Source: Dyella sp. OK004 (GTDB lineage: Bacteria; Pseudomonadota; Gammaproteobacteria; Xanthomonadales; Rhodanobacteraceae). From it: a stretch of 64,000 nt of DNA. Location: NCBI RefSeq assembly GCF_900114495.1, contig NZ_FOZI01000005.1, forward strand, positions 248,001 through 312,000. Direction: 5' to 3'. The notes beneath the pieces are model-generated. The model made no database searches. It saw only the letters and a list, made by a program, of their open reading frames with translations, and was not told the origin of the DNA. The translations under genes were made by a program, and so were the position numbers. Shown piece after piece: positions 19,960 to 52,835 of this stretch (its first letter is position 1; each line of letters opens with the position of its first letter).

Positions 19960-20673
19960 ATGGACTGGAAAAGCGTGATCGAGTCCGCTCCCGTGTGGCG
20001 CGGCGACGTGGCAGAGGCGCGTGCTGTGCAGAGCGAGCTGGCCGCGCGCGTAAGTCTGGTGGATGACTATCCGCCGCTGCGCGTGATTGCCGGCGTCGAT
20101 GTGGGCTTCGAGGACAGTGGCGCCATCACCCGCGCCGCCGCCGTATTGCTGGATGCGGGCACGCTGGTGCCGATCGCGCAGGTGGTGGCGCGTCTGCCTA
20201 CGTGCATGCCGTACATCCCTGGGTTGCTGTCGTTCCGCGAGTTGCCTGCGGTGTTGCAGGCGCTATCCGGGCTGCCGCAGGTGCCGGATATGGTGTTGGT
20301 GGATGGGCAGGGGATTGCGCATCCGCGTGGGCTGGGTATCGCGGCCCATCTTGGGGTGATCACCGGGCTGCCGACGATTGGTGTGGCGAAGACAATTTTG
20401 GTTGGCAGTCATGCGGCTGTCGGGGAGCGGCGCGGGGATCGTGCTGACCTGGTGTATCAGGGGCGGGTGATCGGCACGGTGTTGCGCAGCAAGGATCGGG
20501 TGAAGCCGTTGATTGTGTCGCCGGGGTATCGGGTGAGTGTGGAAGGGGCGGCGGAGCTGGTGTTGGCTGGGTGTACGCGGTATCGGTTACCGGAGGCTAC
20601 GCGGTGGGCGGATCGGGTGGCGTCGCGGCGTGATCGATCTTCTTCCTTTCCGCTTGGCGATCTGTATAGGTAG
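19960..20673 (+). CDS. nfi: Endonuclease V (deoxyinosine 3'-endonuclease)
   Basis: Protein of 237 residues. The catalytic acidic residues are in place: Asp47 in VIAGVDVGF, Glu94 in SFRELP and Asp115 in LVDGQG. The strand-separating wedge PYIPG is at 84-88, and HPRGLGIAAHLG at 121-132 is the family signature. It cleaves the second phosphodiester 3' to deoxyinosine in deaminated DNA. The last 400 bases of the gene become strongly G+T-rich (runs of GTG, TTG and GGG codons) toward repeat copy 3, unlike the first 200 bases. The C-terminal 20 residues look ragged. Confidence 0.92.
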   Translation: MDWKSVIESAPVWRGDVAEARAVQSELAARVSLVDDYPPLRVIAGVDVGFEDSGAITRAAAVLLDAGTLVPIAQVVARLPTCMPYIPGLLSFRELPAVLQALSGLPQVPDMVLVDGQGIAHPRGLGIAAHLGVITGLPTIGVAKTILVGSHAAVGERRGDRADLVYQGRVIGTVLRSKDRVKPLIVSPGYRVSVEGAAELVLAGCTRYRLPEATRWADRVASRRDRSSSFPLGDLYR

Positions 20674-20675
20674 TT

Positions 20676-21041
20676 CCTGCGGGAGAGTGGGTTGGGGTGA
20701 GGGCTTGGCCCTCGCGACGTCCTTCCCACTTCGTCATCCCTGCGTAGGCAGGGATCCAGTAGTGAAGCACTTCGGTTGTCGCGTCTGCGTGCTCTGGCTC
20801 GCCTGCCGCGGGCTTTCGAACCGCTGCCGCGGTCCGAGTCACTTTCTCTTTGCTGGCCCAAAGAGAAAGTAACCAAAGAGAAATGGCCTGAGAGCAGGCG
20901 GTGTGCTCTGTAGCTGTGCCTTTTCCAGTGTCAGGCGTTGGGATGGTTCTCTTCGAAGTCTGATCGTTATTCCTCATCGAAGCGCAACATCTCCCTCTCC
21001 CCTCCGGGGAGAGGGTTGGGGTGAGGGGTGGGTGCTCGGGG
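20676..21041 (+). repeat. Composite intergenic repeat, copy 3
   Basis: This is the full form: an upstream GGGTGAGGGC segment, a REP stem (ATCCCTGC / GCAGGGAT, about 20735-20754), and the core (about 20778-20948) with the perfect 12-bp hairpin ACTTTCTCTTTG / CAAAGAGAAAGT. A downstream C-rich/G-rich hairpin ends in GGGTGCTCGG. It occupies the 486-base gap between nfi and the ABC transporter. The last 120 bases before that gene show no further structure I can name. Confidence 0.9.
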
Positions 21042-21159
21042 ATGCGTTGCTACTTCGCTGCTTGAGCTCTTGCATCCTTCTAGTTTTGCCCTCAGCTTTT
21101 CTCTCCCTCGACATCTATTTCAGGCACCATGCCGTTCTTGGCATGGCGGGAGCGCCGCG

Positions 21160-23010
21160 ATGATTTTCCGTTGGTTTGAATCGCTCATCGATGCTTTCAA
21201 GGAGCCGGTGGATGGGATGCCGCCGCAGTCGGTGTGGCGTTTTTACGTGTTTTATCTGCGCCAGGTGTGGCCGGTGTTTGCGGCGGCGATCGTGGTGGGT
21301 TTTGGTGTGGCGATTGTTGAGGTGTCGCTGTTCGGGTTTATCGGCAGCATTGTCGATATGGCGAAAGGGGTGCCGACGGCGGATTTCTTCCAGAAGCATG
21401 GGAATGAGTTGCTGTGGATGGGGCTTGTGGCGCTGATCGCACGGCCGGTGTTGATCGGGCTGCATGATTTGCTAGTGAATCAGGCGATCGTGCCGAATCT
21501 CACCAGTCGTATCCGCTGGCAGAACCATCGCTATGTGATCCGCCAGAGTCTGGGGTTTTTCCAGAACGACTACGCGGGGCGCATTGCCAATCGCATCATG
21601 CAGACGGGTGGTTCGCTGCGTGAGTCGGCGGTGCAGATTGTGGATGCGATCTGGTACGTCACCATCTATACCGGCAGCGCCATCGTGATGTTTGCGAAGG
21701 CGGATTTCTGGCTAGCCGCGCCGTTGGTGGTGTGGTTGGTGGCGTATGTCGCCACGCTGGCGTTTTTCGTGCCACGTACCAAGGAGCGTTCCTGGCGGCA
21801 GTCGGAGGCGCGTTCGCGCCTGATGGGGCGCATCGTCGATGGTTACAGCAACATCCTCACGCTCAAGCTGTTCGCGCATACGCGGCGCGAGGAGTCTTAT
21901 GTGGCGGATGCCATGGGCGAGCAGATCAAGCGCATGCGCGCGATGACGCGGCTGACCACGTTGATGGATGCCACCATCACGACGCTCAACGGTTTCCTGA
22001 TTGTCGGCACCTCGGCGCTGGCGATCTGGCTGTGGAGCCAGGGCAAGGTGACGGTGGGCGCGATCGCGCTGAGCACCGGGCTGGTGATCCGCATCAACAA
22101 CATGTCTGGCTGGATCATGTGGGTGGTCAACGGCATCTTCGAGAATGTCGGCACGGTGCAGGACGGCATGGAGACCATCTCGCGTCCGCGCACGGTGCAG
22201 GACAGTGAAGGCGCGATGCCGCTGGAAGTCACCAACGGTGCCGTGCATTTCGACGACATCCATTTCCACTACGGCAAAGAAGGCGGGGTGATCGCCGGCC
22301 TGGCACTGGCCGTGCGTGCGGGCGAGAAGATTGGCTTGGTCGGTCCGTCCGGCGCGGGCAAGTCGACGCTGGTGAACGTGCTGTTGCGTCTGTACGACCT
22401 CGAAGACGGACGCATCCTGATCGATGGTCAGGACATCGCCCACGTCACGCAGGAAAGCCTGCGCTCGCAGATTGGCGTGGTGACGCAGGACACCTCACTG
22501 CTGCATCGTTCGATCCGCGACAACCTGCTCTACGGCAGGCCGGATGCCAGCGAGGCGCAGATCCTTGAGGCGGTGCGCAAGGCGCGCGCCGACGAATTCA
22601 TTCCGCAGCTGGTGGATGGCGAAGGCCGCCATGGCTATGACGCCCACGTCGGCGAGCGCGGCGTGAAACTCAGCGGCGGCCAGCGCCAGCGCATCGCCAT
22701 CGCGCGCGTGCTGTTGAAGGACGCACCGATCCTGGTGCTGGACGAGGCGACGTCAGCGCTGGATTCGGAGGCCGAGGCGGCGATCCAGGACAGCCTGGAG
22801 CTGTTGATGCGCGGCAAGACGGTGATCGCGATTGCGCATCGCTTGTCCACGATTGCGCGGATGGATCGATTGGTGGTGATGGACAAGGGGCATGTGGTGG
22901 AGACCGGCACGCATGCGGAGTTGATTGCGCATGGTGGGTTGTATGCGCGGTTGTGGAGGCGGCAGACGGGTGGGTTTGTGGCGGCGGAGGATGATTCAGT
23001 TGTCGCCTGA
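21160..23010 (+). CDS. ABC exporter, fused permease and ATPase (MsbA-like)
   Basis: Protein of 616 residues. An N-terminal ABC exporter transmembrane domain (about 20-330, six membrane helices) is followed by a nucleotide-binding domain with Walker A GPSGAGKST at 395-403, signature LSGGQ near 504-508, Walker B ILVLDEAT near 525-532 and the H-loop AHRLST. It is a half-transporter that must dimerise to export a lipid, peptide or drug across the inner membrane; the substrate is not readable. The start at 21160 follows GGGAG. Codons at both ends of the gene are G+T-rich while the middle is not, in step with repeat copies 3 and 4 on its flanks. Confidence 0.88.
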   Translation: MIFRWFESLIDAFKEPVDGMPPQSVWRFYVFYLRQVWPVFAAAIVVGFGVAIVEVSLFGFIGSIVDMAKGVPTADFFQKHGNELLWMGLVALIARPVLIGLHDLLVNQAIVPNLTSRIRWQNHRYVIRQSLGFFQNDYAGRIANRIMQTGGSLRESAVQIVDAIWYVTIYTGSAIVMFAKADFWLAAPLVVWLVAYVATLAFFVPRTKERSWRQSEARSRLMGRIVDGYSNILTLKLFAHTRREESYVADAMGEQIKRMRAMTRLTTLMDATITTLNGFLIVGTSALAIWLWSQGKVTVGAIALSTGLVIRINNMSGWIMWVVNGIFENVGTVQDGMETISRPRTVQDSEGAMPLEVTNGAVHFDDIHFHYGKEGGVIAGLALAVRAGEKIGLVGPSGAGKSTLVNVLLRLYDLEDGRILIDGQDIAHVTQESLRSQIGVVTQDTSLLHRSIRDNLLYGRPDASEAQILEAVRKARADEFIPQLVDGEGRHGYDAHVGERGVKLSGGQRQRIAIARVLLKDAPILVLDEATSALDSEAEAAIQDSLELLMRGKTVIAIAHRLSTIARMDRLVVMDKGHVVETGTHAELIAHGGLYARLWRRQTGGFVAAEDDSVVA

Positions 23011-23040
23011 TCCTTTTTGCTCCGGCTCTTTGCTTGATCC

Positions 23041-23330
23041 TTCTCCCTGTGGGAGAAGGTGGCCCGAAGGGTCGGATGAGGGTTCGGTCTCGCGCCATTC
23101 CTCCTACTTCGTCACCCCAGCGTAGGCCGGGGTCCAGTGGCGTTATCGCTCGGTTCTAGCGTCTGCGTGCGCTGGGTCGCCTGCCGCGGGCTTTCGAACC
23201 GCTGCCGCGGTCCGAGTCACTTTCTCTTTGCTGGCCCAAAGAGAAAGTAACCAAAGAGAAATGGCCTGAAGAGCAGGCGGTGTGCTCTGTAGCTACGCCT
23301 TTTCCAGTGTCAGGCGGCGGGATGTTTTCC
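23041..23330 (+). repeat. Composite intergenic repeat, copy 4, with pil upstream region
   Basis: It has an upstream hairpin CTCCCTGTGGGAG, a REP stem (ACCCCAGC / GCCGGGGT, one mismatch, about 23113-23133) and the full-length core (about 23157-23326) with the perfect 12-bp hairpin. There is no downstream C-rich hairpin. The following 270 bases up to the pilV gene must contain the pil promoter, but I could not find a convincing -35/-10 pair or a sigma-54 site there. Confidence 0.88.
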
Positions 23331-23601
23331 TCCGAGCCGTTCCGCCCGGGCCTCGTCGCCACATAGGGGCGGCTACGAGCTCGCTTCGCATTCCCTACTC
23401 AAGCGCAAATAATTGCGTATGTCGCCAGGTGGATTTCGTCTCCGGTCGTCGGTGAACACCTCCCAATCTTGTGATTCACCGCATATTTTCCCTGCCTTCT
23501 CTCTCCGTTCGTCGGGTTTTTGCTGCCGCCTGTCTCATAAACCCTTGCCGTAATTACTTACGATTGTAGGGTTGGCGCAAGCTTTACAGGGGAGACAGGG
23601 G

Positions 23602-24135
23602 ATGCGCGTCGGGTCGCGGCAGCGAGGGGTTTCGCTGATTGAGGTGTTGATGGCGGTGCTGATTTTCAGCATCGGTCTGATTGGGCTGGCCGGGTTGCTG
23701 GTGATGGCGGCGCGGTCGAATCAGGCGGCGTATCTGCGCACGCAGGTGACGTTTCTGGCTGGGAGCATGGCGGATCGCATGCGCGCCAATCCGGTGGCGG
23801 TGTGGAACGGGGCTTACAACGACATCAACTATCCGGTGACCACGGCGAAGAGCTGTGACGCCGCCGCGGCTTGTACGCCGGCGGAAGTGGCGGCGCGCGA
23901 CAAGTTTGCCTGGAGCAGTCTGCTGAGCGCTGCGGTGCCGGGGCCCAAGGCGACCATCCAGTGCACTGGCCGTGATGCGGTGGGTTTCGCGCTGACGAAC
24001 GACCACATCAATATGCGGCCGCCTTATGGCGGCAATTGCGTGATGCGTATCCAGTGGCAGGAGCGCAAGGCGGGCGACAAGGGCGCCAACAGTGAATCGG
24101 CGCAGCAGACGTTTGCCTGGGAGTTCCAGCCATGA
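23602..24135 (+). CDS. pilV: Type IV pilus minor pilin / modification protein PilV
   Basis: Protein of 177 residues with a short leader and the class III prepilin signal QRGVSLIEVLMA: PilD cleaves after Gly and Glu5 of the mature protein is present. A hydrophobic helix of about 20 residues follows (VLIFSIGLIGLAGLLVMA). Next comes the PilV-typical SNQAAYLRTQVTFLAGSMADRMRANP. It is a minor pilin in the priming complex at the pilus tip. The ATG follows GGGGAGAC. It is first in a six-gene operon. Its first codons are G+T-rich next to repeat copy 4. Confidence 0.92.
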   Translation: MRVGSRQRGVSLIEVLMAVLIFSIGLIGLAGLLVMAARSNQAAYLRTQVTFLAGSMADRMRANPVAVWNGAYNDINYPVTTAKSCDAAAACTPAEVAARDKFAWSSLLSAAVPGPKATIQCTGRDAVGFALTNDHINMRPPYGGNCVMRIQWQERKAGDKGANSESAQQTFAWEFQP

Positions 24136-25445: not shown

Positions 25446-25491
25446 GGCGGGCGCCTTGCGCGCTCCCGCCCGTTAGCGAGTGGAGTTTCCG

Positions 25492-26145: not shown

Positions 26146-26160
26146 GGATCGGGGGAATCC

Positions 26161-29826: not shown

Positions 29827-30244
29827 ACACACGCACGCACACGGCTTCACCCTGGTCGAGCTGATGATCGTGGTGGCGGTGATCGCCATCCTCGCCGCCG
29901 TCGCGATTCCTTCCTATGGCCGCTACGCCTATCGCGCGCGCCGCGTTGACGGCAAGGAACTGCTCCTGCGCATCGCCAATGCGCAGGAGCGTTATTACGC
30001 CACTTTCAATCGTTACGGTGCGTTGACGGATATCGGGTACACCAACCCGGCACCGTCGGAGAAGGGCTACTACTCGGTGACTATTGCGACATCTGCCTCT
30101 GCCGCGCAGGCGTACACCGCCACGGCCAGTCCGGCTGGCGTGCAGGTGAAAGATGTCTGCAAGCAGTTGTCGATCACCAACGCAGGCGTTAAGCAACCCG
30201 ACGCCAGCAACCTCACGGCGAACAACAACGGCCCCTGCTGGTGA
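29816..30244 (+). CDS. pilE: Type IV minor pilin PilE
   Basis: Protein of 142 residues. The prepilin signal is HGFTLVELMIVVAVIAILAAVAIPSY, with cleavage after Gly and Glu5 present; the full hydrophobic helix follows. The body has KELLLRIANAQERYYATFNRY and GYYSVTI, typical of the PilE minor pilin of Pseudomonas and Xanthomonas operons. Two cysteines near the C-terminus (CKQL and the final CW) probably form the pilin disulfide loop. GGAGGG lies before the ATG. The start overlaps the end of pilY1. Confidence 0.9.
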   Translation: MIAKHTHAHGFTLVELMIVVAVIAILAAVAIPSYGRYAYRARRVDGKELLLRIANAQERYYATFNRYGALTDIGYTNPAPSEKGYYSVTIATSASAAQAYTATASPAGVQVKDVCKQLSITNAGVKQPDASNLTANNNGPCW

Positions 30245-30249
30245 ACGCC

Positions 30250-30855
30250 ATGCGCAGACCTCCATCCCGCCAGCGCGGCCTGAGCCTGATCGAGCTGATG
30301 ATCACCATCTTCGTGCTCGCGATTCTGTCGGCGATAGCCGTACCCAACTTCCGCAACCTCATCCACCGCCACCAGATCACCACCGCCACCAACAGCCTCC
30401 TTGCCGCTTTCGCCTATGCACGCAGCGAAGCCGTCACCCGCGGCACCTTCGTCTCCCTCTGCCCCAGCGCTGACGGCAAAACCTGCGCCACCACCACTGC
30501 CTACGACACCGGCTGGCTCATCTACGCCTACCCTGTCGGCACTGACGGTGCTGACCAGGTCTACGACAGCGACCCAAAGAGTGGCTTCCAACTTTTACGC
30601 AACACCTCTGGCCCGCAAAACGTCAGCGTCATCGCCAAAGACAACAAGATCATCAGCTACGGCCAACAAGGCCAACTCAAACGCACCGTCCCCAGCGATG
30701 GCGGCCCATCCCTCAGCTTCGTTGTATGCAACAAAAACGGCGACGGCCAAGCCAGCAATACCTCCGGCGCACCAGGCACGCGGATTGATGTGAGCGGAGC
30801 GGGCGGGGCGAGGAGCAAGACGCTGGCGGGGGATGCAGGGTGTGGGTTCGATTGA
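30250..30855 (+). CDS. FimT/GspH-type pseudopilin
   Basis: Protein of 201 residues with prepilin motif QRGLSLIELMITIFVLAILSAIAVPNF and the GspH/FimT body (SLLAAFAYARSEAVTRGTFVSLC, GWLIY, ISYGQQGQL, ending SKTLAGDAGCGFD). It may bind DNA or prime the pilus, by analogy with FimT of Legionella and Pseudomonas; that is an inference. It ends the operon, whereas fimT/fimU usually comes first. A GTG nine bases earlier (30241) is an alternative start that overlaps the pilE stop. The coding strand here is C+A-rich, opposite to the genes near plus-oriented repeats, and the inverted copy 5 follows. Confidence 0.86.
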   Translation: MRRPPSRQRGLSLIELMITIFVLAILSAIAVPNFRNLIHRHQITTATNSLLAAFAYARSEAVTRGTFVSLCPSADGKTCATTTAYDTGWLIYAYPVGTDGADQVYDSDPKSGFQLLRNTSGPQNVSVIAKDNKIISYGQQGQLKRTVPSDGGPSLSFVVCNKNGDGQASNTSGAPGTRIDVSGAGGARSKTLAGDAGCGFD

Positions 30856-30905
30856 GGGTGGTCTACTGCGGACCGCAGAGCAAGAATGCTAGATAGCAGC
30901 GCGTT

Positions 30906-31311
30906 CCCGAGCACCCATCACCCCACCCCAACCCTCCCCTGTCCCACGGGACTAGCTTCGCGTCGCAAGCAGGGAGGGAGCAAAAGCTCTGCACGGTAGT
31001 GAGTGCTGGACGATCAGGCCGAGAAGAGAGCCATCCCGACGCCTGACACTGGAAAAGGTGTAGCTACAAAGCACACCGCCTGCTCTCAGGCCATTTCTCT
31101 TTGGTTACTTTCTCTTTGGGCCAGCAAAGAGAAAGTGACTCGGACCGCGGCAGCGGTTCGAAAGCCCGCGGCAGGCGAGCCAGCGCACGCAGACGCTAAA
31201 ACCGAGCGACAACGCCACTGGATTCCGGCCTTCGCCGGAATGACGGAGTAGGTGTGTACATCGCAAGGGTCGAACCCTCACCCCGGCCCTCTCCCGAAGG
31301 GAGAGGGAGAA
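30906..31311 (-). repeat. Composite intergenic repeat, copy 5 (inverted)
   Basis: This is the only copy in minus orientation. Read on the minus strand it has a GGGAGAGGG hairpin segment, a REP stem (ATTCCGGC / GCCGGAAT), the full core (complement of about 31031-31200) with the perfect 12-bp hairpin, and a downstream CCCTCCC...GGGAGGG hairpin ending GGGTGCTCGG. It fills the 468-base gap between the convergent fimT-type gene and recD. Confidence 0.9.
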
Positions 31312-31323
31312 GGGCGCAAAGCG

Positions 31324-33273
31324 TCAGCGCAACCGATCCCTCAACCCCGAATGCCTAAACGTCACCCTCCCCACCGCCTCAGCCACCACATCTCCCCCAC
31401 CCACCAACGTAAACCACCGCCGCGCCCGCGTAACCCCCGTATACAAAAGCTCCCGCGTCAGCACGCCGCTAGCCCGCTCCGGCAACACCAGCGCCGTATG
31501 CTCGAACTCGGAGCCCTGCGACTTATGCACCGTCATCGCAAACACCGTCTCCAGCTCGCCCAGCCGCGAAGGCAGGATGAAGCGGATACGTTCCGTCTGC
31601 GCACCGCCACGCGAACCATCGGCGACCAAAAACGCTACACGCAAACGCGGTTCGCCATCGGTGGAAGGCACGCGCAGCGCAATGCCGACGTCGCCATTCA
31701 TCAGGCCGAGGTTGTAGTCGTTGCGCGTCATCAATACCGGCCGGCCTTCGTACCAGTCGTGGCCGGCGTCGATCAGCTGGGTGCGTTGCAGGATGCCGGC
31801 GATCTGCTGATTGAGACCTTCCGTGCCGTAAGGTCCGCTGCGCAGCGCGCATAGCAGCTGGAAGCGGTGAAAGGCGTCGAGTACGTGGCGTGCCCACTGC
31901 GCATGTGCCTCGTCGCCGGCATCGATGGCCGGCCGTTCGCGGCGCAGCTGTTCGAGATAGTGGCGATAGCCCTGCGGAGCATCACCGTCCTGCACAGCGA
32001 AGTGTTCGCGGCCGCCGTGCAGTACGAGGGTGGAAAGTTCGTTTGCATCCGCGACGCCATCGATCCAGGCGATATCCATCTGCGGTGACTGAAACAAGGT
32101 GCGCACACTGCCGAGATCTCCCGCGTTCACGGCCTGCGCCAGGCGGCCGATGCCGCTGGCGGCGTCGAAGCGATGGCTGTGCCGCAGCATCACTACATGC
32201 TGATCCAGTGCGCGGGCATCGCTGCTCACCCATGGCTGCACGTTGTCGCCGGTGGTCGTGCGCAGCCAATCGGCCGTGGTCTGCTCGTAGTGACCGCCTT
32301 CGGCGCGGCGGCATAGATCGCCGAGCACGGCGCCGGCTTCCACCGAGGAAAGCTGATCCTTGTCGCCAAGCAGGATCAACCGTGCGGACGATGGCAGCGC
32401 GGTGAGCACGGCGGACATCATTTCCAAATCGACCATCGAGGCTTCATCGATCACCAGCACGTCCAGCGCCAACGGGTGCGAGGCGTCGTGGCGGAAGCTG
32501 CGGGTGTCGGGGCGCGCGCCGAGCAGGCGGTGCAGTGTGTCGACGGTGGCGGGAATGGCTGCGCGCACGGCGTCGTCGACATCAAGGCGCGCCAGCTGGC
32601 CGTGGATGGACGCGTTGAGCCGCGCGGCGGCCTTGCCGGTGGGTGCGGCGAGACGGATGCGCAGCGGCCGCGGCTGTTCGCGCAGATGCAAGGTCTGCAG
32701 CAGTCCGAGCAGGCGCACCACGGTGGTGGTCTTGCCGGTGCCCGGGCCGCCGGTGATCACGGTGAAGGCGCCATGCGCGGCTAGCGCACAGGCGACACGC
32801 GGCCAGTCCGGCTGTGCGGCGGAGGCGGGAAACAGGCGGGCCAGTTCTTCGCCGAGGTGTGTCGGCACCGCCTGTATTACCGACCAGCGTTCGCTGATTG
32901 CCTGCGCCACCTGACGCTCATGGTTCCAGTAGCGCCGCAGGTACAGTCGTATGCCGTCCAGCACCAGTGGCGTGGCGCCTTCGCCGCTGCCGATCCATAC
33001 AGGCAGGACTTGTGCCTGCAAGGTTCGCTCAATCGCATCGCGCCAGTGCGAGGGCCAGGATTGCTCGTCGGCGAGCGTCCGCCACATGGAAAGGTCGAGA
33101 CAGAGATGGCCGTCGGCCAGCTGTCGGCTGAGCAGGGCGGCGAGCAACAGCCAGCCGGCATCGGCTTGTGCATCCTGTTCGGCGAGGAAGCGCGCGAACG
33201 CGATGTCGAGCGCGCGCAGGCGCTTTTGTTCGGTGGCATGGGCGAGCAGGGCAAGGCGGGAATCAGGCTGCAT
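31324..33273 (-). CDS. recD: Exodeoxyribonuclease V alpha subunit (RecD helicase)
   Basis: Protein of 649 residues, a superfamily 1B helicase. It has Walker A GGPGTGKTT (175-183), VLVIDEASMVDLEMM (motif II), LILLGDKDQLSSVEAGAVLGDL (motif III) and MTVHKSQGSEF (motif V), with the C-terminal VTRARRWF. RecD is the 5'-3' motor of RecBCD in double-strand break repair. It starts 11 bases inside the end of recB. The last 250 bases are extremely C+A-rich on the plus strand, that is G+T-rich on the coding strand, next to the inverted repeat copy 5. Confidence 0.93.
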   Translation of the reverse strand: MQPDSRLALLAHATEQKRLRALDIAFARFLAEQDAQADAGWLLLAALLSRQLADGHLCLDLSMWRTLADEQSWPSHWRDAIERTLQAQVLPVWIGSGEGATPLVLDGIRLYLRRYWNHERQVAQAISERWSVIQAVPTHLGEELARLFPASAAQPDWPRVACALAAHGAFTVITGGPGTGKTTTVVRLLGLLQTLHLREQPRPLRIRLAAPTGKAAARLNASIHGQLARLDVDDAVRAAIPATVDTLHRLLGARPDTRSFRHDASHPLALDVLVIDEASMVDLEMMSAVLTALPSSARLILLGDKDQLSSVEAGAVLGDLCRRAEGGHYEQTTADWLRTTTGDNVQPWVSSDARALDQHVVMLRHSHRFDAASGIGRLAQAVNAGDLGSVRTLFQSPQMDIAWIDGVADANELSTLVLHGGREHFAVQDGDAPQGYRHYLEQLRRERPAIDAGDEAHAQWARHVLDAFHRFQLLCALRSGPYGTEGLNQQIAGILQRTQLIDAGHDWYEGRPVLMTRNDYNLGLMNGDVGIALRVPSTDGEPRLRVAFLVADGSRGGAQTERIRFILPSRLGELETVFAMTVHKSQGSEFEHTALVLPERASGVLTRELLYTGVTRARRWFTLVGGGDVVAEAVGRVTFRHSGLRDRLR

Positions 33274-40416: not shown

Positions 40417-40499
40417 GGGGCGACTGCGGGGTTGTTCATGTGGGGATTGTGGCGGACATCGTTGTTGCGGGCGAGTGGTGGGGCACTAGATTCCGCCAA

Positions 40500-40840
40500 A
40501 CTTCGTCATTCCGGCGCAGGCCGGAATCCAGTGCCTTATCGCTCGGTTGTCGCGTCTGCGTGCGCTGGCTCGCCTGCCGCGGGCTTCCGAACCGCTGCCG
40601 CGGTCCGGGTCACTTTCTCTTTGCTGGCCCAAAGAGAAAGTAACCAAAGAGAAATGGCCTGAAGAGCAGGCAGTGTGCTCTGTAGCTGTGCCTTTTCCAG
40701 TGTCAGGCGTCGGGATGGTTTCTTCTCGGCCTGATCGTCCTCCACTCACCGCCGCACCAAGCTTTGCTCCCTCCCCTGCTTGCGACGCGCAGCTAGTCCC
40801 GTGGGACAGGGGAGGGTTGGGGAGGGGTGTGGGTGCTCGG
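40500..40840 (+). repeat. Composite intergenic repeat, copy 6
   Basis: It has a REP stem (ATTCCGGC / GCCGGAAT, about 40508-40529), a full core (about 40549-40720) with the perfect 12-bp hairpin, and a downstream C-rich/G-rich hairpin of the long type (CCCTCCCCTG ... CAGGGGAGGG with 20 or so bases between), then GGGTGCTCGG. It lies upstream of both the recC operon and the DUF3574 gene. The remaining 270 bases up to that gene contain only the separate hairpin at 40932 and no recognisable gene. Confidence 0.88.
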
Positions 40841-40931
40841 TAGAGCGTGGCTACTTTGCGCGTTGCTTTGTGCTCTCGAATCCACGACGCCGTCATCCGC
40901 TCATAAGCAAATAACGCACCGCCATAACGAA

Positions 40932-41560: not shown

Positions 41561-41629
41561 TCGGCGCGGTGCCGGAACGATGTGCTTGAACTACCTCCAT
41601 ACACGCCGCCATCACACAGGGAATTCCCT

Positions 41630-43231
41630 TTGAACCCTTCTTCTTCGCGTCGCTGGCTCACTCCCGGCGACCTCAACGGCTTTCTCGGGCTGGTGGTGGA
41701 CAACCTGTCCATCATGGCGTTTCTAGCCACGGCGCTGATCGGCATCTTCGGGTTCCCGGCCGATATCGTGTTCCTGCACATGTTCCCCGGCACGGCGCTG
41801 GGCGTGCTGCTGGGCAACCTGGCTTACACCGCAATGGCGCGGAAGTTGGCACGGCGAACTGGGCGCGATGACGTCACGGCGATGCCGCTGGGCCTGGATG
41901 CGCCAACCAGTATCGGCATGGCGCTGCTGGTACTCGGTCCGGCGTTTCTGCATTTCAAGCAGGGCGGGATGGACGAGCATGTCGCGGCGGTGGCGACCTG
42001 GCAGCTGGGCATGGCCTCGCTGGTGGTGATGGGTGTGCTGAAGTTCGTGCTGTCGTTCTTTGGCGCGGCGGTGCAGCGGCACGTGCCGCGCGCCGGGTTG
42101 CTCGGTTCGATCGCCGGCATCGCGCTGGTGTTGATGGGCTTCCTGCCGCTGGTGGAGATTCTGAAGGTGCCGGTGGTGGGCTTCGCCGGGCTTGGTGTGG
42201 TGCTGTATGCGCTGGTGGCACGCGGTCGCCTGCCGTTCGGTTTGCCGGGTGTGCTGGTGGCATTCGTGATCGGTGCCTTGCTGTATTACGTGCTGGGGCC
42301 GCTGGGTTGGCTGGGCACGGGTTACCACGCACCGGCCGCATGGCAATGGCGCTTCGCGTTGCCGCTGCCGACGTTGCAGTGGATGCAGGGCACTGCATAT
42401 ACCGTGCCTTACCTGCCGCTGATTCTTCCGTTCGGTCTGCTGATGGTGGTGGGCGGCATCAATGTCACCGAGAGTGCGCGCGCGGCGGGTGATGACTACT
42501 CGACCCGCGACATTCTGCTGGTGGAGGCGCTGGCGACGTTGGTCGCGGGCTTTTGCGGCGGCGTGGCACAGACCACGCCGTATATCGGCCAGCCTTCGTA
42601 CAAGGCGATGGGTGCGCGCAGCGGCTATACCTTGCTGACCGGTGTGGTGATCGGGCTGGGCGGGGTGTTCGGTTATCTGTCCAATCTGGTGGAACTGGTG
42701 CCGCTGTCGGTGCTGGCGCCGATCCTGGTGTTCGTTGCCATCGGCATCACCGTGCAGGCGTTCGAGGCGACGCCGATGCGTTATGCGGCTGCGGTGGTGT
42801 TCAGTTTCTTTCCGGCTATCGCGCGCATGGTGACGATCAAGCTGAGCGATCCCACCTACGTGTCGCCCGAGCATTTCGGCGCCTTGTTCAACGACCGCGC
42901 GCACGGCATTTCCGAACTGGCGGTGATCACCGTGCTGGGCAACGGCTTCATCATCACCTCGATGATCTGGGCCAGCTTCGTGGTAGCGCTGATCGACGGC
43001 AAGACGGCGCGCGGCGCGTTGATTCTTTTGCTGGGTGGCGCGCTCAGCCTGTTCGGGCTGATCCATTCGGTGGAGCCCGCGGGCGGAGTGTATCTGCCCT
43101 GGTTGCTGGATGCCGGCGAGCGCAGTGTGGTGTGGCAATTTGCCGGTGCTTATCTGGTGCTGGCGGTGGTGTTGTTGCTGTTGTCATTGCAGCGGGCTGA
43201 CGTGAACAGAGCGTCGAAATTCACAACCTAA
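41630..43231 (+). CDS. NCS2-like (xanthine/uracil permease-type) membrane transporter
   Basis: Protein of 533 residues with about 12-14 membrane segments. LTPGDLNGFLGLVVDNLSIMAFLATAL, MPLGLDAPTSIGMALLVLGPAF, GGINVTESARAAGDDYSTRDILLVEALATLVAGFCGG and TPYIGQPSYKAMGARSGYTLL are in the pattern of NCS2/SulP-like permeases, with the conserved acidic helix (INVTESARAAGDD). The substrate is not clear; it may be a purine or an anion. The start is uncertain: a TTG at 41630 has AGGGA about six bases before it, while a GTG at 41582 would add 16 residues. It is downstream of the DUF3574 gene and may share its transcript. Confidence 0.78.
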   Translation: MNPSSSRRWLTPGDLNGFLGLVVDNLSIMAFLATALIGIFGFPADIVFLHMFPGTALGVLLGNLAYTAMARKLARRTGRDDVTAMPLGLDAPTSIGMALLVLGPAFLHFKQGGMDEHVAAVATWQLGMASLVVMGVLKFVLSFFGAAVQRHVPRAGLLGSIAGIALVLMGFLPLVEILKVPVVGFAGLGVVLYALVARGRLPFGLPGVLVAFVIGALLYYVLGPLGWLGTGYHAPAAWQWRFALPLPTLQWMQGTAYTVPYLPLILPFGLLMVVGGINVTESARAAGDDYSTRDILLVEALATLVAGFCGGVAQTTPYIGQPSYKAMGARSGYTLLTGVVIGLGGVFGYLSNLVELVPLSVLAPILVFVAIGITVQAFEATPMRYAAAVVFSFFPAIARMVTIKLSDPTYVSPEHFGALFNDRAHGISELAVITVLGNGFIITSMIWASFVVALIDGKTARGALILLLGGALSLFGLIHSVEPAGGVYLPWLLDAGERSVVWQFAGAYLVLAVVLLLLSLQRADVNRASKFTT

Positions 43232-43446
43232 GACCATCACGCGATTTGCACAGCGACGCTTCACGCTGCTTTCGCGCGTCATCGGGCATTCAATGACATG
43301 TCGAAGGGGAATCTTGCTTGCGTCCGGCCGGGTGCGGTGAAGTGGCCCGGTGTCGGGACGTGGGTCCGTTGTTGCTTGCTTCGGGCGCGTCTAGCTAAGC
43401 GCTGCCGCGCACTGAGCCTACCTTGGGCTGGATCCGGGGGCTGCTC

Positions 43447-45484: not shown

Positions 45485-45581
45485 CGATATCTCCGGGTTG
45501 TTCTGGGCATTATTGTCGCCGGAGCATCCGTAGCCGGCTTTGGCCTGCAGATTAATTCCATTTAAGAATCGCCACGACTCC

Positions 45582-46271: not shown

Positions 46272-46317
46272 GCTTTAGCTCCCTCTCCCTCTGAGACCTT
46301 TGGGATGGCTCGCTTTT

Positions 46318-46600
46318 CTCCCTCTCCCCTTCGGGGAGAGGGTTGGGGTGAGGGATGGGTGCTCGGTTCACCGCCTCTACTTTGTCATCCCTGCGCAGGC
46401 AGGGATCCAGTAGTGGTGTGCTTCAGTTGTCGCGTCTGCGTGCGCTGGCTCGCCTGCCGCGGGCTTCCGAACCGCTGCCGCGGCTCGGGTCACTTTCTCT
46501 TTGCTGGCCCAAAGAGAAAGTAACCAAAGAGAAATGGCCTGAGAGCAGGCGGTGTGCTCTGTAGCTGCGCCCTTCCCAGTGTCAGACGTCGGGATGGTTC
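46318..46600 (+). repeat. Composite intergenic repeat, copy 7
   Basis: It has an upstream hairpin CCCTCTCCCC-TTC-GGGGAGAGGG with linker GGGTGCTCGGTTCACCG, a REP stem (ATCCCTGC / GCAGGGAT, about 46387-46407), and a full core (about 46429-46600) with the perfect 12-bp hairpin. There is no downstream C-rich hairpin. The 140 bases left before the efflux adaptor gene hold no other feature I can name. Confidence 0.9.
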
Positions 46601-46741
46601 GCCCTTACCCTCCGCACGCTCTCAAGCAGAGCAAAAGAAACGGAAAGCCTTAATTCTTTTTAATGTCGCGGCGAAAGGGAGTGGAGGCGGGGGGCGGCAT
46701 GCTTTGACGGCAGGGCTTAGGGCTCGTTATGGATTGCCGTT

Positions 46742-47926: not shown

Positions 47927-50900
47927 GTCTTTCCGATACCTTCATCCGCCGCCGTGTCGGCAGCAGCTTGCTGGCGATTGGTCTGATCCTGGTTGGCCTG
48001 GTGGCATACCGCATGCTGCCAGTGGCGCCGCTGCCGCAGGTGGACTTTCCGACCATCAGCGTCAGCGCAAGTCTGCCGGGAGCGAGTGCGGAGACCATGG
48101 CGTCGTCGGTGGCGACACCGCTGGAGCGTTCGCTGGCGAACGTACCGGGCGTGACGCAGATGACGTCGTCGAGTTCGCTGGGTACCACGCAGGTGGTGTT
48201 GCAGTTCGACCTGTCGCGCAATATCGATGGCGCTGCTCAGGACGTACAGACCGCCATCAGTGCGGCCGGTGGCCTGCTGCCGAAGAACCTGCCGAACCCG
48301 CCGACCTATCACAAGGTGAATCCGGCGGACTTCACCATCATGTCGATCGCGCTTACTTCGGACTCGCTGCCGCTGACCGAGCTGGATCGCTACATGGAGG
48401 ATTTCATCGCGCCGCAGGTGTCACAGATGCCCGGCGTGGGTCTGGTCGATTTTCACGGACAACAGCGTCCGTCGGTGCGTATCCAGCTTGATCCGGACAA
48501 AGTCGCCGGGCTGGGCCTGACCATGGATGAAGTGCGCACGGTGGTGGGCACCCAGACGGTGAATGCGCCCAAGGGCACCTTGAATGGCACGCACCAGACC
48601 ATCGTGCTCAACAGTACCGACCAGATCGTGAGCCCGGATGCCTACGCGAACCTGGTGGTGGCGTATCGCAACGGCGCGGCGATCCGCGTCGCCGATATCG
48701 GTCAGGTGGTGCAGGCAGCGGAGGACGTGCGCGAAGCCGCGTGGCTGGAGGGCAAGCGCGCCATCATCATGGATGTGCACAAGCAGCCCGGCTACAACGT
48801 GGTGGATACCATCAAGGCCATCAACGACCGGCTGCCGGCGCTGACTGCATCGATTCCGCCGACGGTGAAAGTGCAGGTGGTTGGCGACCGCACGCAGACC
48901 ATCCAGGCTTCGGTCGCAGATGTGCAGTTGACCATGATGATCACCATCGCGCTGGTGGTGATGGTGATCGCCTGCTTCCTGCGCAACCTATGGGCGACGG
49001 TGATCCCCAGTCTCACCATTCCGCTGTCGCTGATCGCCACCTTCGGCGTGATGTACCTGCTCAATTACAGCCTGGACAATCTGTCGCTGATGGGTCTGAC
49101 CATCGCGGTCGGCTTCGTGGTGGACGACGCCATCGTGGTGATCGAAAACGTGGTGCGTCATATGGAAATGGGCAAGGGGCCGGTACAGGCCGCCATCGAT
49201 GGCACGCGGGAAGTGGGCTTCACCATCGTGTCGATGACCATCTCGTTGATCGCGGTGTTCATACCGATCCTGCTGATGGGCGGCATCGTCGGCCGTTTGT
49301 TCCGTGAGTTCGCGGTGACGGTGAGCGCGGCCATCGTAGTCTCCGGCATCGTGTCGCTAACGGTGACGCCGATGCTCTGCGCATGGCTGATCCGTCCGCA
49401 CCATGACCAGAAACATGGGCGGGTCTATACCGCGCTGGAAAACTTCTTCGAAGGCATGACGCGTTTCTACGTGCGTACGCTGGATGTGACGCTCAATCAC
49501 CGGCGCCTGGTGCTCGGTATTGCCATGGTCACGTTCGCCGCCACCATCGCGCTGTACGTGTTCATTCCCAAGGGCTTCTTCCCGCAGGAGGATGCCGGCC
49601 TGATTATCGGTACGGCACAGGCTTCGTCCAGCATCTCCTATGACGCTATGACCGGTCGCATTCAGCAGCTGGGCAATATAGTGATGGCCGACCCGGACGT
49701 GGACAACGTCTATTACTGGATTGGTCCCAACCCGACCCTGAGCCAGGGCCGCATGATGATCAACCTCAAGCCGTTCGGTCAGCGCACGACCCCTGCCGAC
49801 GTGGTGATGGCGCGCCTGAAGAAGGCCACCAAGAACATCGAGGGCGTGCAGCTGCAGATGCAGGTGCGCCAGGACATCCAGGTCGGCGGCCGTTTAAGTG
49901 CTGCCCAGTACCAGTACACCTTGCAGAGTGCCGACGTCACCACACTGGACCACTGGGCCGGCGAGCTGGCTGCGAAGATGAAAGCGATGCCGCAGCTGCG
50001 CGACATCAGCTCCGACCGCCAGCCTTCGGCGATGACGGCGACATTGAATATCCACCGGGATACGGCGGCGCGTCTCGGCGTGAGCGTGCAGGCCATCGAC
50101 GATGTGCTGTACGACGCGTTTGGCCAGCGCCAGGTGGCGACGCTGTTCACGCAGACCAACCAGTACCACGTGATTGAAGAGGCCGATCCGCGCTTCCAGC
50201 TCAGCACCGACGCCCTGGCGCATCTGTATGTGCGTTCTTCGCTGACCCAGCAACTGGTGCCGCTGAGCATGCTGGCGACGATCGACAATGGGGTGTCGCC
50301 GGTGACGGTGAACCATCAAGGGCTGTTCCCGGCGATAACGCTGTCTTTCAATCTTGCGCCCGGTGCATCGTTGGGCGATGCCGTCACCGCGATTCACACG
50401 GCGGAGCAGGGCATGGGTATGTCGGCGACGGTCACCGGTTCATTCCAGGGTACAGCGCAGGCGTTCCAGAGTTCGCTGGCGAGCCAGCCGTGGCTGATTC
50501 TCGCTGCCTTGGTGACGGTCTATATCGTGCTGGGCGTGTTGTATGAGAGCGCCATCCATCCGCTCACCATCATCTCTACCTTGCCGTCGGCGGGTATGGG
50601 CGCGCTGGTGGCGCTGATCCTGTGCCGGCAGGATCTGTCGGTGATGGGGTTGATCGGCATTATTCTGTTGATCGGCATTGTGAAGAAGAACGCGATCATG
50701 ATGATCGACTTTGCCTTGGTGGCGGAGCGCGAGGGGTTGGATCCGTTGAGTGCGATCCGCCAAGGCTGCGCGCTGCGTTTCCGGCCCATCATGATGACGA
50801 CATTGGCGGCCTTGCTGGGAGCGTTGCCATTGGCGCTGGGGCATGGCGCTGGCGCCGAGCTGCGCGTGCCGCTGGGTATTTCTATCGTGGGTGGCCTGGT

Positions 50901-51024
50901 GGTTTCGCAGGTGTTGACGCTTTACACGACACCGGCGATTTATCTTTGGTTTGATCGGTGGGCGCGGCGGTTTGGTGGGGATGTTCGTGTTGAGCATGGG
51001 CATGTGTTGCCGGCTGCGGAGTGA
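47923..51024 (+). CDS. RND multidrug efflux permease (MdtB/MdtC-like)
   Basis: Protein of 1033 residues. The RND N-terminal segment FPTISVSASLPGASAETMASSVATPLER is of the MdtB/MdtC type. The proton-relay residues are present: an Asp-Asp pair in GFVVDDAIVVIENV (membrane helix 4) and the lysine in GIVKKNAIMMIDFAL (helix 10). A duplicated halves layout with 12 membrane helices is expected. It exports drugs by proton antiport. Only one permease gene is present, whereas E. coli needs MdtB and MdtC together, and no outer-membrane channel gene is adjacent. Confidence 0.92.
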   Translation: MSLSDTFIRRRVGSSLLAIGLILVGLVAYRMLPVAPLPQVDFPTISVSASLPGASAETMASSVATPLERSLANVPGVTQMTSSSSLGTTQVVLQFDLSRNIDGAAQDVQTAISAAGGLLPKNLPNPPTYHKVNPADFTIMSIALTSDSLPLTELDRYMEDFIAPQVSQMPGVGLVDFHGQQRPSVRIQLDPDKVAGLGLTMDEVRTVVGTQTVNAPKGTLNGTHQTIVLNSTDQIVSPDAYANLVVAYRNGAAIRVADIGQVVQAAEDVREAAWLEGKRAIIMDVHKQPGYNVVDTIKAINDRLPALTASIPPTVKVQVVGDRTQTIQASVADVQLTMMITIALVVMVIACFLRNLWATVIPSLTIPLSLIATFGVMYLLNYSLDNLSLMGLTIAVGFVVDDAIVVIENVVRHMEMGKGPVQAAIDGTREVGFTIVSMTISLIAVFIPILLMGGIVGRLFREFAVTVSAAIVVSGIVSLTVTPMLCAWLIRPHHDQKHGRVYTALENFFEGMTRFYVRTLDVTLNHRRLVLGIAMVTFAATIALYVFIPKGFFPQEDAGLIIGTAQASSSISYDAMTGRIQQLGNIVMADPDVDNVYYWIGPNPTLSQGRMMINLKPFGQRTTPADVVMARLKKATKNIEGVQLQMQVRQDIQVGGRLSAAQYQYTLQSADVTTLDHWAGELAAKMKAMPQLRDISSDRQPSAMTATLNIHRDTAARLGVSVQAIDDVLYDAFGQRQVATLFTQTNQYHVIEEADPRFQLSTDALAHLYVRSSLTQQLVPLSMLATIDNGVSPVTVNHQGLFPAITLSFNLAPGASLGDAVTAIHTAEQGMGMSATVTGSFQGTAQAFQSSLASQPWLILAALVTVYIVLGVLYESAIHPLTIISTLPSAGMGALVALILCRQDLSVMGLIGIILLIGIVKKNAIMMIDFALVAEREGLDPLSAIRQGCALRFRPIMMTTLAALLGALPLALGHGAGAELRVPLGISIVGGLVVSQVLTLYTTPAIYLWFDRWARRFGGDVRVEHGHVLPAAE

Positions 51025-51031
51025 CTGATGT

Positions 51032-51410
51032 TCTCCCTCTCCCCTTCGGGGAGAGGGTTAGGGTGAGGGGTGGGTGCTCGGTTCACCGCTTCTACTTCGT
51101 CATCCCTGCGTAGGCTGGGATCCAGTAGTGGTGCGCTTCGGTTGTCGCGTCTGCGTGCTCTGGCTCGCCTGCCGCGGGCTTCCGAACCGCTGCCGCGGCC
51201 CGGGTCACTTTCTCTTTGCTGGCCCAAAGAGAAAGTAACCAAAGAGAAATGGCCTGAAGAGCGGGCGGTGTGCTCTGTAGCTACGCCTTTTCCAGTGTCA
51301 GGCGTCGGGATGGTTTTCTTCTCGGCCTGATCGCTCAGTCCTCATCGGCTATAGAGCAACTTCTCCCTCTCCCCTTCGGGGAGAGGGTTGGGGTGAGGGG
51401 TGCGTGCTCG
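51032..51410 (+). repeat. Composite intergenic repeat, copy 8
   Basis: This is a complete copy: an upstream hairpin CCCTCTCCCC-TTC-GGGGAGAGGG with linker, a REP stem (ATCCCTGC / GCTGGGAT, one mismatch, about 51103-51122), a full core (about 51143-51315) with the perfect 12-bp hairpin, and a downstream identical C-rich/G-rich hairpin ending GGGTGCGTGCTCGG. It lies between the convergent efflux and MFS genes. Confidence 0.9.
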
Positions 51411-51459
51411 GGATAGTGTTGCTACTTGTTGGTCGCACAGTTAAGGCTTGCACAAATAG

Positions 51460-51489
51460 AAAAAGGCCCGGCGATGCCGGGCCTTTTTT
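51460..51489. terminator. Bidirectional intrinsic terminator
   Basis: Stem AAAAAGGCCCGGC / GCCGGGCCTTTTT around a GAT loop, with A and T tracts on the two sides. It directly follows the minus-strand MFS gene and can also stop transcripts coming from the efflux operon and repeat copy 8. Confidence 0.93.
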
Positions 51490-51491
51490 CA

Positions 51492-52835
51492 TCAATCGCG
51501 AGCTTCGAGGGCTCGATTGAGTCGCAATGCGCCTAGGGTGCAGATGGCGCCGGAGAGTAGGTAGAGGCTTACCGCACCGAGTCCGAATTTGGATGACAGG
51601 CTCAACGCTACCAGCGGTGCGAATGCGGCGCCGATGAGCCAGGCGAGGTCGGAGGTGAGGGCGGCGCCGGCGTAGCGGAAGCGGATCGGGAAGTTGGAGG
51701 TGACGGTGCCGGCGGCCTGGCCGTAGGAGAGGCCGAGCAGGGCGAAGCCGATCAGGATGAAGGCGTCTTGCGCGGCCTGCTGGCCGCCGAGCAGCCACGG
51801 GGCGAAGAAGCTGAAGATGCCGATCAGGATCGCGAGCAGGCCGAGTGTGGTGCGGCGGCCGATGCGGTCCGCGATGAAACCGGAGGCGATGGTGCCCAGG
51901 ATGCCTACGACGGCACCGACGACCTGCACGATCAGCACATTGTTGACTGACTGCGTCGCGTTGAGGGTGATCCACGACAGCGGGAACACGGTGACGAGGT
52001 GGAACAAAGCGTAGCTCGCGAGCGCGGCGAACGCGCCGAGGAAGATGTTGTGATCCTGCTTGCGCAGCATCTCGAACATGCCGATGGGTTCCAATTCGCG
52101 CTCTTCCAGCAGCTTGGTGTATTCCTCGGTCACCACCAGGCGCAGGCGCGCGAACAGCGCCACCACGTTGATGGCGAAGGCGACGAAGAAGGGATAGCGC
52201 CAGCCCCAGTTGAGGAAATCGTCGTTCGACAGGTTGGCATGCAGGAACAGGAACAGTGCGCTGGCGAGCATGAAGCCGATCGGCGCACCGAGCTGGCCGA
52301 GCATGGCGTACCAGCCGCGACGGCCCGGCGGGGTGTTGAGCGCGAGCAGTGAGGGCAGGCCATCCCACGAGCCGCCCAGGGCAATACCCTGCAGGATGCG
52401 GAAGAAGGCCAGCAAGGCGATAGCATGGCCGCCGAGCGTGTCATAACCCGGCAAGAAGGCCATACCTACGGTAGAGCTGCCAAGCAAGAACAGGGCCGCC
52501 GTGAGCTTGGTGCCGCGGCTCCAGCGGCGCTGGATCGCCATGAACAGAGCGGTGCCGAACGGGCGTGCGACAAACGCCAACGCGAAAATCACAAAGGAAA
52601 GTAACAATCCGTCAAGGCGATTCTCGAAGGGGAAGAACACCGACGGAAACACCAGCACCGAGGCGATGCCGAATACGAAGAAGTCGAAGTATTCGGACGC
52701 GCGGCCGATGACCACGCCCACGGCGATCTCGCCCGGGGCGACCGTCGAATGGTCGGTGTGCTGCGGCGCGGCGCCTTGCGCCAGGGGGCCTGCCGACGGA
52801 TCGGGGTGGTGCTCAAAAGTGCTCGACATCGTCAT
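51492..52835 (-). CDS. MFS transporter, metabolite:proton symporter type
   Basis: Protein of 447 residues with twelve predicted membrane segments. EIAVGVVIGRASEYFDFFVFGIASVLVFPSVFFP (N-terminus), FVARPFGTALFMAIQRRWSRG, RILQGIALGGSWDGLPSL and GFIADRIGRRTTL are the pattern of the MHS group (ShiA, KgtP, ProP relatives). The substrate, perhaps an organic acid, is unknown. The conserved Asp/Arg motif between helices 2 and 3 is recognisable. An ATG two codons later is an alternative start. The 3' end is G-rich on the plus strand near repeat copy 8, although the gene is on the minus strand. Confidence 0.88.
   Translation of the reverse strand: MTMSSTFEHHPDPSAGPLAQGAAPQHTDHSTVAPGEIAVGVVIGRASEYFDFFVFGIASVLVFPSVFFPFENRLDGLLLSFVIFALAFVARPFGTALFMAIQRRWSRGTKLTAALFLLGSSTVGMAFLPGYDTLGGHAIALLAFFRILQGIALGGSWDGLPSLLALNTPPGRRGWYAMLGQLGAPIGFMLASALFLFLHANLSNDDFLNWGWRYPFFVAFAINVVALFARLRLVVTEEYTKLLEERELEPIGMFEMLRKQDHNIFLGAFAALASYALFHLVTVFPLSWITLNATQSVNNVLIVQVVGAVVGILGTIASGFIADRIGRRTTLGLLAILIGIFSFFAPWLLGGQQAAQDAFILIGFALLGLSYGQAAGTVTSNFPIRFRYAGAALTSDLAWLIGAAFAPLVALSLSSKFGLGAVSLYLLSGAICTLGALRLNRALEARD

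What the first reader, a model, noticed from the sequence alone, without database searches (positions are those of the whole stretch)
20200..51800. Repeat-oriented G+T strand skew in the genes on both sides of each composite repeat
Beside plus-oriented copies the plus strand is rich in G and T whichever way the gene reads; beside the inverted copy it is rich in C and A. Hand counts of single 60-base lines (G+T of 60): 22921 has 47; 22861 has 38; a mid-gene control at 22261 has 32; 51661 (gene on minus) has 38; 601 (gene on minus) has 36; 30421 and 31381 around inverted copy 5 have 23 and 13. The skew fades toward gene centres (nfi, the ABC gene). The REP pair at 5.1 kb without a core shows no such halo. 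This points to a strand-biased mutation or repair process tied to the element.
Basis: partly seen in the sequence, partly recalled or inferred. Interest (0 to 1): 0.78.

Follow-up and report, generated by a model that had tools for sequence, protein, structure and literature searches.

The report
Strand-biased mutation halo around repeats
Around each of many copies of a short DNA repeat in this soil bacterium, the neighbouring genes have drifted toward G and T on the strand that carries the repeat's triple-helix motif, whichever way the genes read, which points to a repeat-anchored, strand-specific mutation process.

Summary
In about 1.2 Mb sampled from this 4.96-Mb Dyella-like genome, 59 of 62 single cores have more G+T at fourfold-degenerate sites of their flanks than far away, on the core's strand, for 33 plus and 29 minus copies alike. 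It holds for genes on either strand and both sides of the core, decays over about 260 bp upstream and 575 bp downstream, mostly cancels at 13 inverted pairs, is nearly absent at core-free gene ends and absent at orthologous sites of a core-poor relative, and recurs in a second species (14 of 14 copies fetched). A substitution model fits C>T, C>G and A>G raised about 3- to 4.5-fold on the core strand, reverse changes unchanged. The core is a perfect class II intrastrand-triplex motif (TTTCTCTTT / AAAGAGAAA / AAAGAGAAA); the accompanying "REP" is the known TM_ECO/BoxC triplex motif. I propose that the triplex blocks copying of its own strand and leaves it single-stranded, where it mutates. That step is inferred. 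Weak points: the long downstream side, no clear halo in a G004 sample, strong halos in a species with imperfect third strands, and total substitution rates not significantly raised.

The parts
20702..20953 (+). composite repeat copy; perfect A/T-rich triplex core at 20843-20883
23080..23331 (+). composite repeat copy (reference); triplex core at 23221-23261
31009..31252 (-). inverted composite copy; triplex core at 31094-31134 on the minus strand; flanks C+A rich on plus
40473..40724 (+). composite repeat copy; triplex core at 40614-40654
46353..46604 (+). composite repeat copy; triplex core at 46494-46534
51068..51319 (+). composite repeat copy; triplex core at 51209-51249
32..244 (+). degenerate copy of the core element (no perfect 9-nt A/T-rich triplex found), with halo
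   Evidence: (C2:248032-248244)
14484..14681 (+). degenerate copy of the core element, weak halo
   Evidence: (C2:262484-262681)
20993..21027 (+).
46320..46354 (+). TM_ECO-type G/C-rich triplex motif
51035..51069 (+). TM_ECO-type G/C-rich triplex motif
51365..51399 (+). TM_ECO-type G/C-rich triplex motif
31275..31307 (-). TM_ECO-type G/C-rich triplex motif beside the inverted copy
5043..5077 (+). TM_ECO-type motif without an A/T-rich core; no halo
20201..20700 (+). upstream halo in the 3' end of the endonuclease V gene (19921-20673 +), raw G+T .63-.68
21060..21800 (+). downstream halo in the 5' part of the ABC transporter gene; first 300 nt of the gene have 4D G+T .90
22801..23010 (+). upstream halo in the 3' end of the ABC gene; last 300 nt have 4D G+T .76
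30201..30780 (-). C+A-rich halo left of the inverted copy, in a plus-strand GspH-like gene (raw G+T .36-.41)
31320..31600 (-). C+A-rich halo right of the inverted copy, in the minus-strand recD gene (raw G+T .37)
50601..51030 (+). upstream halo in the 3' end of the AcrB-type gene (raw G+T .61-.69)

Best explanation
Shown: an element whose centre is an A/T-rich class II intrastrand-triplex motif sits in a halo of strand-asymmetric substitution. On the strand carrying the Y-R-R motif the best fit is C>T, C>G and A>G raised about 3- to 4.5-fold, on both sides, whichever way the genes read. Inferred: when that strand serves as a template it folds into a purine-motif triplex, which stops the polymerase making the complementary strand. 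The template strand is then left as a gap of several hundred bases. Bases damaged in that single strand (deaminated C and A, abasic sites) are copied or bypassed in an error-prone way, giving C>T, C>G and A>G. Re-priming upstream would set the upstream reach; trimming or repeated re-synthesis of the stalled nascent strand would expose the downstream side. Only the purine-rich strand forms this triplex, so the sign follows element orientation rather than fork or gene direction, and inverted pairs cancel.
For: 59 of 62 single cores, + and - alike (.163.151). Smooth decay with distance, codon positions 1 and 2 shifted too. Four gene classes all raised: up-same .73, up-opposite .62, down-same .67, down-opposite .71. 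13 inverted pairs mostly cancel, roughly as adding the two single-core curves predicts. Orthologues: own .72-.79 vs G005 .50-.51; ABC gene with a core at both ends .90/.76, upstream only .82/.53 (G004), downstream only .53/.77 (G002). Second species G001: 14 of 14 single cores fetched. Likelihood: C>T x3.6, C>G x4.5, A>G x2.9; reverse multiplier within 2 lnL of best from .7 to 1.7 on the grid. Core is a zero-mismatch class II motif in six window copies; 63 of 64 own cores with an intact hairpin arm carry AAAGAGAAA as third strand. A/T-rich cores without a G/C-rich motif within 1.5 kb still have the halo (18 motifs.656/.720 vs .526 far); G/C-rich motifs alone are weak (26.555/.526 vs .491). Holder et al. 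2015 (passages) report that PIT elements block DNA polymerase in vitro and that R-type triplexes can arrest replication.
Against: A block on one template predicts mainly an upstream gap, yet the downstream halo is as strong and longer (575 vs 257 bp). Total 4D change is not significantly higher near cores (own:G004 52:44 near, 682:724 far, p = .29) and amino-acid change is relatively lower (27:199 vs 371:1522). Variants inside the core show no excess in the halo direction (C>T .024, G>A .018, A>G .011, T>C .024). Halo size does not follow core integrity over 49 blast hits (Spearman .05; 14 without the exact 15-mer average .159, 35 with it .131). In G001, 11 of 14 cores have an imperfect third strand yet all 14 loci show the halo. 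In a 400-kb G004 stretch opposite-strand genes show none and two A/T-rich motifs give .375/.454; in G002 only 6 of 9 copies exceed their outer flanks, and only the upstream side is raised. A three-parameter fixation model gains 79.6 lnL against 82.9 for the three-rate mutation model. PIT elements had no effect in vivo in E. coli (Holder et al. citing Hoyne and Maher, passage).
Confidence: 0.5

Rival explanations
1. A nickase cuts the complementary strand at the core; exonucleases widen the nick both ways (as in mismatch-repair excision), exposing the core strand, and gap filling is error-prone. Same mutagenic substrate, different trigger.
For: Explains a same-sign halo on both sides better than a one-way block. 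The core is strongly palindromic (DNA fold z -3.5 to -4.7) and its centre is the most conserved part of the element. Does not need a perfect third strand, as G001 lacks one in 11 of 14 cores.
Against: No nickase identified; the only Y1_Tnp-type transposase found in the genome has no core in its 3.3-kb locus, and three of five relatives (G001, G003, G004), all with cores, gave no match.
Confidence: 0.2
2. Selection or biased fixation for G and T on the core strand (a DNA-level signal), not mutation.
For: Fits nearly as well: one-parameter form 6.5 lnL below the one-parameter mutation model, three-parameter form 79.6 against 82.9 lnL. Total rate not significantly raised. G+C content of 4D sites stays about constant. 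Runs of G are enriched on the halo's core strand (GGGG 9.1 against 2.5 per kb).
Against: Reverse changes are not depressed: a multiplier of .5 costs about 3.3 lnL.3 about 6.7. Mutation model preferred in 96% of 150 bootstraps over 15 cores, interval -0.5 to 17.8 lnL. Top oligomers beyond Markov expectation look like remnants of the G/C-rich motif (my reading). Would need weak selection over hundreds of unrelated codons per copy.
Confidence: 0.15
3. R-loop or transcription-linked asymmetry: an RNA running in the core direction displaces the core strand.
For: G-rich non-template strands favour R-loops (general knowledge).
Against: Genes reading against the core have the halo too; transcripts would have to start inside unrelated upstream genes.
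Confidence: 0.07
4. The repeat inserts into, or is kept in, places already rich in G+T.
For: Element orientation follows the local background skew (C2, same-strand genes far away.54 beside plus copies.46 in core orientation beside minus copies).
Against: Core-poor G005 is flat at orthologous sites; ABC orthologues track presence and side of the core.
Confidence: 0.03
5. Gene-end codon usage or hydrophobic codons mimic a halo.
For: A permease-like gene without a core is G+T rich; last 100 nt of core-free genes rise to .53-.57.
Against: Effect reaches .62-.82 at 4D sites, both gene strands, with nothing comparable at core-free ends and little at inverted pairs.
Confidence: 0.02
6. Break resection or local replication origins at the core.
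For: Both expose single-stranded DNA.
Against: Both predict a sign change across the element; the sign is the same on both sides.
Confidence: 0.02

Closest known systems
Intrastrand triplex motifs of bacteria: TM_ECO / BoxC / PIT elements (Holder et al. 2015, PMC4666352; abstract, sections 15-16 and found passages seen)
   Same: The paper links TM to instability, comparing 500 nt on each side.
   Different: Core is A/T-rich with a 9-nt stem and 8- and 6-nt loops. In the parts I read the paper reports rearrangement, not a base-composition halo, and 'skew' does not occur in its text. Here the G/C-rich motif alone has little or no halo.
Replication-strand asymmetry (leading strand rich in G+T; PMC5291525, abstract start in a listing)
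   Same: Same bases gained.
   Different: Local to hundreds of bases and set by element orientation, with equal size for plus and minus copies.
Mitochondrial strand gradients (C>T and A>G in long-lived single strand; PMC3269015, abstract start in a listing)
   Same: C>T and A>G on one strand.
   Different: Here also C>G, and anchored at many interspersed sites.
Strand-coordinated mutation clusters after break repair (PMC6786661, PMC9262586, abstract starts in a listing)
   Same: Mutations in single-stranded tracts.
   Different: Those are clusters from repair events; here a lasting compositional state at fixed sites.
REP/BIME elements moved by RAYT transposases (recalled; PMC2817692 abstract start in a listing)
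   Same: Interspersed, palindromic, many copies.
   Different: No RAYT beside the core; three relatives with cores gave no RAYT match.

Membership tests
class II intrastrand triplex motif (TM/PIT) | Y-R-R order on one strand, R complementary to Y | tested here: met
   six perfect A/T-rich cores and six TM_ECO-type motifs in the window
class II intrastrand triplex motif (TM/PIT) | third strand triplet-compatible and antiparallel | tested here: met
   AAAGAGAAA is its own mirror; 63 of 64 own matches in the fetched stretches; but in G001 11 of 14 read AAAGAGAGA, one mismatch
class II intrastrand triplex motif (TM/PIT) | loops of 1-6 nt (ITxF rule) | tested here: inconclusive
   core loops are 8 and 6 nt with a 9-nt stem; loop 1 is 6 nt if the hairpin is counted with one more pair, as in the fold
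class II intrastrand triplex motif (TM/PIT) | folds as a triplex and stops polymerase | not testable with these tools
   needs oligonucleotide CD/NMR and primer extension
TM_ECO / BoxC (for the REP) | pattern CCCTCNCCC N3-6 GGGNGAGGG N3 GGGNGAGGG | tested here: met
   five places on plus, one on minus in the window (pattern)
REP/BIME with RAYT | RAYT gene beside elements and present where elements are | tested here: not met
   one Y1_Tnp gene, no core within 1 mismatch in its 3.3-kb locus; no match in G001, G003, G004, which have cores
replication-strand asymmetry | sign follows fork direction | tested here: not met
   minus copies reverse the sign locally with similar size; fork direction itself was not mapped

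The most novel reading that the evidence does not exclude
An interspersed DNA-triplex repeat works as a fixed, orientation-coded generator of single-strand gaps, so well over a hundred sites per genome impose a lasting directional mutation pressure on neighbouring genes. This would be a third source of bacterial strand asymmetry beside replication and transcription, and a record in sequence of non-B DNA forming in living cells.
Probability: 0.45. Interest if true: 0.9.

Novelty: new variant of a known kind. Interest (0 to 1): 0.82.

Why it matters
Bacterial strand skew is usually attributed to replication and transcription. Here a short repeat sets a strong local skew by its own orientation, shifts fourfold-degenerate C from about 41% to about 15% at its edges, and nudges coding positions too. 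If triplex folding is the cause, it gives in-genome evidence that intrastrand triplexes form in vivo, a question left open because PIT elements showed no in vivo effect in E. coli (passage), and a natural series of sites to test it on.

Tried and rejected
Rejected: insertion preference; gene-end or hydrophobic-codon artefact; break resection and local origins (same sign on both sides); G/C-rich motif as sole cause; RAYT link; known RNA family (Rfam gave only a tRNA in the window).

Led nowhere: papers by core sequence (none); DnaE2/ImuB mutation spectrum as support for C>G (the passages of one Caulobacter paper gave no C>G signature); dependence on core integrity (none); a 101-base ABC piece against E. 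coli (no match).

Mended on checking: the reverse-rate estimate is an optimiser artefact (it did not move from 1) and one search replaces it; one search's variant counts were inflated by an optional letter in the pattern and one search replaces them; the raw left flank of the first window copy is 9 bases and is not used. The G003 'single' copies mostly have a degenerate inverted partner (7 of 11). One search compared 47 of 64 copies; the 17 lost equal the number of reverse-hit loci, which that script searched on one strand only. Odds: the fixation rival went from .13 to .15 because its three-parameter form was not weighed before.
Full report
What was checked. Raw G+T is a noisy measure, so I used fourfold-degenerate third positions (4D sites), oriented to the strand of the core, with genes called by a simple codon-usage finder of my own. 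The genome (4,960,986 bases, 8 contigs; window = C2:248001-312000) holds 163 exact copies of the core 15-mer AAAGTAACCAAAGAG, 70 forward and 93 reverse.

The halo. Contig C2 (23 cores): within 250 bp upstream, same-strand genes have A .03 C .16 G .65 T .16 at 4D sites, against about .08/.41/.40/.11 far away; opposite-strand genes reach G+T .66 upstream and .80 at 250-500 bp downstream. Contig C7 (first 400 kb, 21 cores) repeats it, 19 of 20 cores with data. Moving all cores together round the contig never reaches the observed value in 5000 shifts (z 11.3 and 11.5). With 20 more stretches, chosen because they hold cores, 59 of 62 single cores exceed their own far flanks, median +.16, plus (33) and minus (29) copies alike; one of the three exceptions lies at a contig end. 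The 100-bp profile peaks at .82 upstream and .81 downstream, near the element's edges, and decays with fitted lengths of 257 and 575 bp. Codon positions 1 and 2 shift the same way by 1-5 points.

Controls. Core-free gene ends.53-.57 in the last 100 nt, about .50 beyond. Core-free REP and second-palindrome hits.497 and .503 against .504 and .498 far (5 and 12 sites). Thirteen inverted core pairs: left flank .59.49.53 and right .33.44.46 by 250-bp bins; adding the single-core curves to the pairs' own background, which I set by hand, predicts .68.54.47 and .29.43.50, so the cancellation is approximate.

Orthologues. The ABC transporter gene of the window and 40 relatives: own gene with cores at both ends .90 (first 300 nt) and .76 (last 300); G004 with an upstream core only .82 and .53; G002 with a downstream core only .53 and .77; the other 38 have no core hit or only weak hits of 34-43 bits near the gene (four genomes) and range .49-.73 and .43-.73, so the 5' contrast is clear and the 3' one modest. 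Against G005, which has one core hit in the 400 kb compared, aligned 4D sites read .715-.792 versus .500-.514 in the bins within 500 bp outside the element; values are near each other beyond about 2 kb. The halo therefore tracks the core; whether G005 lost cores or never had them was not tested.

Other species. G001: 14 of 14 single copies fetched, out of 65 motif matches in that genome. G003: 9 of 11 apparent singles, but 7 of those 11 have a degenerate inverted partner. G002: 6 of 9, raised on the upstream side only. G004: raised beside same-strand genes, not beside opposite-strand genes, in a 400-kb sample with 13 cores, some of them inverted pairs. The effect is strong in two species and partial or uncertain in three.

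What changes. Three-taxon likelihood (own, G004, G005; 1016 near sites, 268 of them with G004): raising all A/C>G/T rates by one factor gains 78.9 lnL (k = 3.6); C>T, C>G, A>G freed separately give 3.6, 4.5, 2.9 and gain 82.9; C>T and A>G alone gain 49.8, C>G alone 56.9; a one-parameter fixation preference for G/T gains 72.4 and a three-parameter one 79.6. The reverse multiplier peaks near 1-1.3 and loses more than 3 lnL at .5. Bootstrapping 15 cores prefers the one-parameter mutation model in 96% of 150 draws. Polarised counts are small (156 near sites where G004 = G005): C>G .26 against .10 far, C>T .17 against .12, G>C .06 against .10, G>A .04 against .09. Against this reading, a relative-rate test finds no significant rise in total change, and variants inside the core show no such asymmetry.

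What the element is. Six G/C-rich motifs match the TM_ECO/BoxC pattern printed by Holder et al. 2015. The triplex segment is nearly invariant among 47 copies. A/T-rich cores alone carry the halo (18 motifs.656/.720 against .526 far); G/C-rich motifs alone are weak (26.555/.526 against .491), and some of these may sit near cores too degenerate for the scan, as in G001, where 11 of 14 cores have an imperfect third strand.

Mechanism. Same sign on both sides excludes break resection and local origins in their simple form; independence of gene strand argues against transcription; reversal at minus copies argues against fork direction alone. What remains is repeated exposure of the core strand. A purine-motif triplex forms on the purine-rich strand only (recalled), which supplies the asymmetry; a block to synthesis on that template leaves the strand single. 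The upstream gap follows directly; the longer downstream side needs trimming of the stalled end, re-synthesis, or a nick with two-way excision, the main rival. That G001 shows strong halos with imperfect third strands speaks for the rival or for a tolerant triplex. C>G beside C>T would suit bypass of abasic sites left by uracil removal (general knowledge, not tested). Equivalent lesions on the other strand cannot be told apart from sequence.

Print. Nine literature searches listed no title or abstract start that reports a repeat-oriented composition halo; listings are capped and the library holds only open-licence papers. Of Holder et al. I read the abstract, sections 15-16 and found passages; of the Caulobacter paper PMC7198004, passages only.

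Noticed in passing
window 41582-43231: Permease-like gene rich in G+T (.64-.69 in places) with no core hit within about 1 kb; probably hydrophobic GTG/CTG codons, a warning about raw G+T counts.
   Followed up: partly
window 30781-30855: The last 75 bases of the GspH-like gene beside the inverted copy are G-rich, opposite in sign to the C+A halo just before them.
   Followed up: no
window 16433-16570: 67-base inverted repeat, arms 88% complementary with a 4-base spacer.
   Followed up: no
window 19921-20673 and 31324-40416: Endonuclease V (acts on deaminated adenine, recalled) and the recD-recB-recC genes lie right beside halo-bearing repeats; probably chance.
   Followed up: no
G001 loci L178-L191: Third triplex strand is AAAGAGAGA in 11 of 14 cores, one mismatch from the mirror, yet halos are strong.
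   Followed up: partly
G003 loci L279-L291: Cores come as inverted pairs about 620 bases apart; in this genome pairs are about 250-375 apart.
   Followed up: partly
L155 (G000:C6:866309): Lone Y1_Tnp transposase gene with its own CAACCTGACCCCTGTTTT-like flanking repeats, no core beside it.
   Followed up: partly
window 289-324 and 61292-61327 (minus): Two further G/C-rich class II triplex motifs outside the TM_ECO pattern (the second with one mismatch).
   Followed up: no
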